From Alphaproteobacteria bacterium RIFCSPHIGHO2_12_FULL_66_14 (GTDB taxonomy: Bacteria > Pseudomonadota > Alphaproteobacteria > Reyranellales > Reyranellaceae): DNA of 35,849 nucleotides. A program made the translations under genes and the position numbers. The stretch lies in NCBI GenBank assembly GCA_001767945.1, contig MEMN01000075.1, positions 2,948-38,796 of the forward strand, read 5' to 3'. The notes below the pieces were generated by a model, which had not been told where the DNA came from, made no database searches, and saw nothing but the letters and a program-made list of their open reading frames with translations. Shown here piece after piece: positions 33,666 through 33,729 of the stretch (its first letter is position 1; the number at the start of each line of letters is the position of its first letter).

Positions 33666-33729
33666 GAGTCCACAGCGATTCCTGGTCAAGAAACCAATTG
33701 AATCAATCGTTTAGACACCAGATCGAGTC
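33666..33729. promoter_or_regulatory. Cluster of four GANTC sites upstream of ccrM
   Basis: GAGTC (33666-33670), GATTC (33677-33681), GAATC (33700-33704) and GAGTC (33725-33729) fall in 64 bp, immediately upstream of the ccrM ATG. By base composition one site per about 300 bp is expected. In Caulobacter the ccrM promoter carries GANTC sites and responds to methylation state, so these are strong candidates for feedback control by CcrM and GcrA. Confidence 0.65.

What the first reader, a model, noticed from the sequence alone, without database searches (positions are those of the whole stretch)
33666..33729. Four GANTC sites packed upstream of ccrM
The gene encodes the GANTC methyltransferase, and its own upstream 75 bp hold four GANTC sites. 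This is far above the roughly one per 300 bp expected from composition. It points to methylation-dependent autoregulation as in Caulobacter, but with a denser site cluster.
Basis: partly seen in the sequence, partly recalled or inferred. Interest (0 to 1): 0.6.

Follow-up and report, generated by a model that had tools for sequence, protein, structure and literature searches.

The report
Methylation-site array inside ccrM's own promoter
The gene for the cell-cycle DNA methyltransferase CcrM in this Reyranella genome has the enzyme's own target sites built into fixed positions of its promoter, an arrangement shared by much of the class Alphaproteobacteria but absent from the sampled relatives of the two orders where ccrM control was studied, which points to widespread methylation-dependent self-control, here without the usual reader protein GcrA.

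Summary
The four GANTC sites are real (33666, 33677, 33700, 33725). They are not a loose cluster. On ccrM's strand they are placed around a sigma-70-type promoter: TTGACC (33689-33684), 17-bp spacer, CATCTT (33666-33661). One site ends on the first base of the -10, one lies in the spacer, one just upstream of the -35, one further up.

The placement recurs across the class. TTGAC-N13-15-GANTC precedes 46 of 86 class ccrM loci (shuffles: mean 0.3, max 3) and 24/25 Reyranella loci. In the spacer site the N varies freely while GA and TC hold, so the selected thing is the methylation motif. The sampled Caulobacterales (0/9) and Hyphomicrobiales (0/7) lack it, so "as in Caulobacter" is the wrong comparison.

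No GcrA was found in 26 Reyranella genomes, and no site fits its extended motif. I infer direct reading of methylation by sigma-70 RNA polymerase; the sign of the feedback is untested.

A second element overlaps site A: a pair of NrdR-like boxes 32 bp apart, weak in this genome, stronger in relatives.

Methylation autoregulation of ccrM is already suspected in Caulobacter; the architecture, its distribution, the missing GcrA and the NrdR link look new.

The parts
32566..33654 (-). ccrM, GANTC adenine DNA methyltransferase (362 aa, DPPYN motif and C-terminal RAMA domain)
   Evidence: Best NCBIfam hit CcrM NF050803 E 3e-184, below that model's cut-off; Pfam N6_N4_Mtase and RAMA above cut-off; only copy in the genome; 96-97% identity to the nearest Reyranella
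33684..33689 (-). -35 element TTGACC
   Evidence: TTCTTGAC is nearly invariant in 24 Reyranella loci; recurrent class-wide
33661..33666 (-). -10 element CATCTT, 17-bp spacer from the -35; predicted +1 falls on the A of the ATG (leaderless mRNA, inferred)
   Evidence: the generic sigma-70 scanner did not call it
33666..33670 (-). Site D, GACTC, ending on the first base of the -10 (about -16 to -12)
   Evidence: Present in 23/24 Reyranella; GANTC in this place in 44/70 class loci anchored on -35/-10 alone
33677..33681 (-). Site C, GAATC, in the -35/-10 spacer (about -27 to -23)
   Evidence: 36 spacer sites among the 44 class promoters with site D, N = C12 G12 A9 T3; 16/24 Reyranella, and 5 of the other 8 carry a site directly upstream of the -35 instead
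33700..33704 (-). Site B, GATTC, upstream of the -35 (about -50 to -46); centre of a near-palindrome CAATTGANTCAATTG in the genus
   Evidence: 23/24 Reyranella; alignment; commonest class-wide upstream offset is -20 from TTGAC
33725..33729 (-). Site A, GACTC, inside the promoter-proximal NrdR-like box
   Evidence: 22/24 Reyranella
33715..33730 (-). NrdR-like box 2, TGACTCGATCTGGTGT
   Evidence: Matrix trained on Reyranella ribonucleotide-reductase boxes, 32 bp from box 1, empirical P per position 3.2e-5 for the pair in this genome
33747..33762 (-). NrdR-like box 1, CGCCTAGCCATGGTGG (degenerate in this genome)
   Evidence: same aligned place in most other Reyranella with better scores

Best explanation
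The GANTC array is the methylation input of ccrM's own sigma-70 promoter. SHOWN: the sites occupy fixed places relative to the -35 and -10 in Reyranella and across much of the class, and in the spacer site only the CcrM recognition letters are held. INFERRED: CcrM methylates the two core sites (adenines about -15/-13 and -26/-24), the replication fork makes them hemimethylated, and the methylation state changes RNA polymerase binding or opening, so ccrM output follows replication. INFERRED: because GcrA is missing in Reyranella, sigma-70 RNA polymerase reads the state directly rather than through GcrA; in GcrA-bearing orders GcrA may read the same sites. INFERRED, direction about 60:40: full methylation turns the promoter down, giving a pulse after replication and then shut-off. 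Site A overlaps an NrdR-like box and may let methylation tune a second regulator.
For: TTGAC-N13-15-GANTC upstream of ccrM in 24/25 Reyranella, 46/86 class loci and 52/77 named loci; dinucleotide-shuffled class upstreams give mean 0.3, max 3. Anchored only on TTGAC + 16-18 + nAnnnT, GANTC ends on the first base of the -10 in 44/70 class, 23/24 Reyranella and 52/58 named loci. Spacer-site N is free while GA/TC are held. GANTC is 17.5/kb in the 200 bp upstream against 1.3/kb in the ccrM gene body of class loci. TTGACN{13,15}GANTCANNNT occurs at no more than three places in each of eight Reyranella genomes, and one of them is ccrM in all eight. In Reyranella the spacer site and the site abutting the -35 exclude each other: 16 with only the first, 5 with only the second, 0 with both. 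GcrA: none at E 0.001 in the 19 Reyranella and nothing GcrA-like (best E 0.02, a short HTH stretch) in the 20, 26 different genomes together, while the same Pfam model finds it in 63/80 other class genomes; 12 of 17 GcrA-less class genomes still have the promoter.
Against: No methylome, start-site or expression data were available. The direction of the effect is not determined. Site C is missing in 8/24 Reyranella. About half of class loci lack the full arrangement, and on a weakly supported CcrM tree the trait needs 29 changes, so it is gained or lost often. GcrA absence rests on profile searches; a very divergent reader could be missed. Class loci are related and not independent.
Confidence: 0.62

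Rival explanations
1. GcrA-dependent methyl-promoter: GcrA with sigma-70 binds the methylated sites and activates ccrM, a positive loop as at other GcrA targets.
For: The sites lie where a sigma-70 cofactor could use them, and most class genomes sampled encode GcrA. GcrA is a methylation-dependent activator that recruits RNA polymerase (PMC3667746).
Against: No GcrA found in 26 Reyranella genomes, and only a weak hit (E 0.004) in the order-mate G025. None of the four sites matches YGAKTCK on either strand (read). Twelve of 17 GcrA-less class genomes keep the promoter.
Confidence: 0.15
2. Caulobacter-type control: CtrA activates the promoter, and GANTC sites in the leader switch it off.
For: [quoted passage not shown] CtrA binds the ccrM promoter in Sinorhizobium (PMC4433202).
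Against: No TTAA-N7-TTAA in the Reyranella upstreams read; the sites lie upstream of the predicted start, not in a leader; Caulobacterales and Hyphomicrobiales have a different arrangement.
Confidence: 0.05
3. NrdR operator first: the upstream region is mainly a ribonucleotide-reductase-type operator that ties ccrM to dNTP supply, and site A is there as a methylation-sensitive part of it.
For: A matrix trained only on Reyranella RNR boxes gives its best 31/32-bp pair at the same aligned ccrM place in 22/24 Reyranella, mostly at empirical P 6e-6 to 1e-5 per position. All three Reyranella RNR loci carry 31-bp pairs. NrdR is present in all 11 genomes tested. Strong boxes outside the usual rnhB reading frame occur in several other families, e.g. 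L115, L145, L138.
Against: In the window genome the pair is weak (3.2e-5 per position; another spacing scores nearly as high). The RNR training boxes were picked by a consensus scan at this spacing. In Rhodobacterales the box lies in the rnhB C-terminal codons (PVHNILYQ), so its conservation may be protein-level. It does not explain sites C and D.
Confidence: 0.13
4. Composition or chance, or sites that belong to a transcription factor whose motif happens to contain GANTC.
For: Local AT content is higher; about one such cluster per genome is expected from density alone. Site B sits in a conserved palindrome and site D is mostly GACTC.
Against: Fixed promoter positions class-wide against 0.3 expected, and free N at the spacer site.
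Confidence: 0.05

Closest known systems
Caulobacter crescentus ccrM promoter (CtrA-activated, methylation-sensitive)
   Same: Same gene, GANTC sites next to the promoter, probable methylation feedback (PMC2217572; 'most probably' methylation-regulated in PMC3973325)
   Different: CtrA-driven; in the C. vibrioides locus L230 the start-proximal sites are GACTC-AT-GATTC and there is no TTGAC-N14-GANTC core
GcrA/CcrM-controlled sigma-70 promoters (mipZ, ftsZ and others)
   Same: GANTC close to sigma-70 promoter elements, methylation as input (PMC3667746, PMC3708114, PMC7987155)
   Different: No GcrA found in the genus, no YGAKTCK site, several sites per promoter, and the target is the methyltransferase itself
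Promoters with a methylation site at the -10 or -35, such as IS10 transposase with Dam, and restriction-modification methyltransferases such as CfrBI (from general knowledge, not looked up here)
   Same: Recognition site overlapping a core promoter element, RNA polymerase read-out without a dedicated reader
   Different: Several spaced sites, a cell-cycle orphan methyltransferase, recurrent over a whole class
NrdR operators of ribonucleotide reductase genes
   Same: Two 16-bp boxes an integer number of helical turns apart, 15-16 bp spacer (PMC12051234); same spacing as the Reyranella RNR pairs
   Different: Upstream of a methyltransferase gene; degenerate boxes; one overlaps a GANTC site

Membership tests
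CcrM orphan GANTC methyltransferase | N6/N4 methylase domain plus C-terminal RAMA-type domain, CcrM the best family | tested here: met
   the NCBIfam score of 612 is below that model's 830 cut-off, whose name suggests a Caulobacter-centred model
CcrM orphan GANTC methyltransferase | Methylates GANTC in this organism | not testable with these tools
   No methylome; GANTC depletion in the window (59 against 173 expected) is only consistent with it
Caulobacter-type CtrA-dependent ccrM promoter | TTAA-N7-TTAA CtrA site upstream | tested here: not met
   No exact match in the Reyranella upstreams read
Caulobacter-type CtrA-dependent ccrM promoter | GANTC sites downstream of the transcription start, in the leader | tested here: not met
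   All four lie upstream of the predicted +1; the start is predicted, not mapped
GcrA-dependent methyl-promoter | GANTC inside or next to sigma-70 core elements | tested here: met
   Sites C and D
GcrA-dependent methyl-promoter | GcrA encoded in the genome | tested here: not met
   No match in G000 or the other Reyranella with Pfam PF07750 or with profile A2 from divergent GcrAs; detection in 63/80 other class genomes. G000 itself is 89% complete, so the genus is the evidence
GcrA-dependent methyl-promoter | Extended motif YGAKTCK | tested here: not met
   Site contexts CGAGTCA, TGAATCA, CGATTCC, TGAGTCC and their reverse complements
NrdR operator | Two 16-bp boxes with a 15-16 bp spacer | tested here: inconclusive
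   Pair at 32 bp start to start, weak in the window genome, stronger in relatives
NrdR operator | nrdR gene present | tested here: met
   G000:C170:14804-15244, above the TIGR00244 cut-off
NrdR operator | NrdR binds and represses | not testable with these tools
   Needs EMSA or a reporter

The most novel reading that the evidence does not exclude
ccrM in Reyranella, and in several other alphaproteobacterial lineages, is a member of the NrdR regulon, and GANTC sites built into its core promoter and into an NrdR box make one switch that combines nucleotide supply (NrdR with dATP/ATP) with replication state (hemimethylation), without GcrA and without CtrA.
Probability: 0.3. Interest if true: 0.78.

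Novelty: new variant of a known kind. Interest (0 to 1): 0.58.

Why it matters
How ccrM is controlled has been worked out in Caulobacter and Rhizobiales, where CtrA drives it. The promoter found here is of another kind and is common in the sampled genomes outside those orders (Rhodobacterales 35/40 loci, Azospirillum/Dongia/Thalassospira 3/4, Micavibrio 3/3). If it works as inferred, many alphaproteobacteria set the level of their epigenetic enzyme by reading methylation on its own promoter, and lineages without GcrA offer a clean case of methylation read by RNA polymerase itself. A held comparative study (PMC2877005) counted GANTC in 500-bp windows and could draw no conclusion on methylation control; looking at position relative to the promoter makes the question testable.

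Tried and rejected
Generic sigma-70 and terminator scan: no call in the region, because the -10 is CATCTT. CtrA-type site: none. GcrA: two independent profiles, none in the genus. A regulon of promoters with the same core: TTGACN{13,15}GANTCANNNT gave only two other places in G000 (L178, L181); neither was recognised as a shared regulated gene. Link between GcrA presence and promoter type: not significant (p 0.17). Rhodobacterales NrdR boxes as proof of a DNA-level operator: set aside because they coincide with rnhB codons in a fixed frame. Dating gain or loss on a CcrM tree: weakly supported, 29 changes. Papers joining NrdR with ccrM: three hits in the held library, none judged relevant from title and abstract. 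The 2015 paper on GcrA as a sigma-70 cofactor is not held. RegPrecise could not be consulted, so an existing prediction that NrdR controls ccrM cannot be ruled out.

Full report
WHAT IS THERE. The window comes from a Reyranella genome: 25 of the 41 genomes of the first relatives search (the window's own included) fall in one genus, and a named record, uncultured Reyranella sp., shares 97% of the CcrM protein. ccrM is at 32566-33654 on the minus strand, a single copy with the expected methylase and RAMA domains. Four GANTC sites lie 12 to 75 bp upstream of its ATG. GANTC is depleted in the window as a whole, 59 sites against 173 expected, and this is the densest 4-site span in the window and one of two places in the assembly with four or more closely spaced sites. 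Density alone would give about one such place per genome, so the cluster needs comparison to be meaningful.

A PROMOTER WITH THE SITES BUILT IN. Read on the minus strand the region is GACTC(A)-GATCTGGTGTCTAAACGATT-GATTC(B)-AATTGGTTTC-TTGACCAG-GAATC(C)-GCTGTG-GACTC(D)-ATCTTCCACCGATG. TTGACC and CATCTT are 17 bp apart; site D ends on the first base of CATCTT, and the predicted +1 is the A of the ATG (coordinates checked; the +1 is inferred from standard spacing). In 24 Reyranella loci TTCTTGAC is nearly invariant, and site B (23/24), site D (23/24) and site A (22/24) are held; site C is present in 16, and 5 of the 8 others have a site directly against the -35 instead.

CLASS-WIDE. I read the upstream DNA of 30 loci from the nearest genomes, 80 loci from further class genomes and 80 named loci. 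TTGAC-N13-15-GANTC is present in 46 of 86 class loci, against a mean of 0.3 and a maximum of 3 in 200 rounds of dinucleotide shuffling. Anchoring on -35 and -10 letters only, with no demand for GANTC, a GANTC ends on the first base of the -10 in 44 of 70 class loci. At the spacer site the middle base is C12 G12 A9 T3 while GA and TC are held, which is what selection for the methylation motif predicts. Among named loci the arrangement is in 35/40 Rhodobacterales, 3/4 Azospirillum/Dongia/Thalassospira, 3/3 Micavibrio, 0/9 Caulobacterales and 0/7 Hyphomicrobiales. In eight Reyranella genomes TTGACN{13,15}GANTCANNNT has at most three places each, and ccrM is one of them every time.

WHO READS IT. 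GcrA is the known reader of GANTC methylation (PMC3667746). Pfam GcrA finds nothing in the 19 Reyranella genomes, and a profile from six divergent GcrA sequences finds nothing GcrA-like in the 20 (best E 0.02, a short HTH stretch); together these are 26 different genomes, two of them single-contig. The Pfam model finds GcrA in 63 of 80 other class genomes. None of the four sites fits YGAKTCK. Twelve of 17 GcrA-less class genomes keep the promoter. I therefore take direct reading by sigma-70 RNA polymerase as most likely in Reyranella. That step, and the sign of the effect, are inference.

A SECOND ELEMENT. Upstream, overlapping site A, Reyranella carries two degenerate 16-bp boxes 31-32 bp apart. 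NrdR boxes come in such pairs (PMC12051234). The three Reyranella ribonucleotide reductase loci carry 31-bp pairs. A matrix trained on these alone gives its best pair at the same aligned ccrM place in 22 of 24 Reyranella, but only weakly in the window genome (score 10.5, with 10.1 at another spacing). NrdR is encoded. Limits: the training boxes were selected by a consensus scan at that spacing, and in Rhodobacterales the strong box coincides with rnhB C-terminal codons in a fixed frame. Several other families have strong boxes outside that frame. I rate the NrdR link as a serious hypothesis, not a result.

COMPARISON WITH WHAT IS KNOWN. In Caulobacter CtrA activates ccrM, only from a hemimethylated chromosome (PMC2217572), and ccrM is listed as most probably methylation-regulated (PMC3973325). 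In Sinorhizobium CtrA binds the ccrM promoter and its depletion lowers ccrM (PMC4433202). A comparative study counted GANTC upstream of cell-cycle genes and could not infer control from counts (PMC2877005). None of the passages I read describes the arrangement found here; papers outside the held library were not checked.

VERDICT. Observation confirmed. Interpretation partly supported: methylation-dependent autoregulation is likely, but by a promoter type different from Caulobacter's and without GcrA.

Noticed in passing
33825-34055 and 34052-34423 (+): A MazE-like antitoxin and PemK/MazF-like toxin pair sits divergent from ccrM in this genome (Pfam PF11455, PF02452).
   Followed up: no
G000:C26:9661-9729 and just beyond (L033 1501-1610): The only other dense GANTC cluster found in the genome, five sites in 69 bp plus one about 40 bp on; the neighbouring genes were not identified.
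   Followed up: partly
whole window: GANTC is depleted about threefold against dinucleotide shuffles (59 against 173).
   Followed up: no
G023:C42:138440-138724 (beyond L012): A second, partial copy of the CcrM C-terminal domain (residues 267-361, 85% identity) about 2.3 kb past ccrM in one Reyranella.
   Followed up: no
G210 (same family, other genus, 99% complete): No CcrM at E 1e-60 and no GcrA match at E 10: a close relative that may have lost the methyltransferase.
   Followed up: no
L162 (G026:C28): A 93-residue open frame resembling only the C-terminal half of GcrA.
   Followed up: partly
Rhodobacterales loci L200, L210, L227 and others: The near-palindrome ACACAATATCTTGTAT lies in the last codons of rnhB (PVHNILYQ) at a fixed distance from the ccrM -35; DNA element and protein constraint cannot be told apart.
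   Followed up: partly
33654: The predicted +1 coincides with the ATG, so ccrM mRNA may be leaderless in Reyranella.
   Followed up: no
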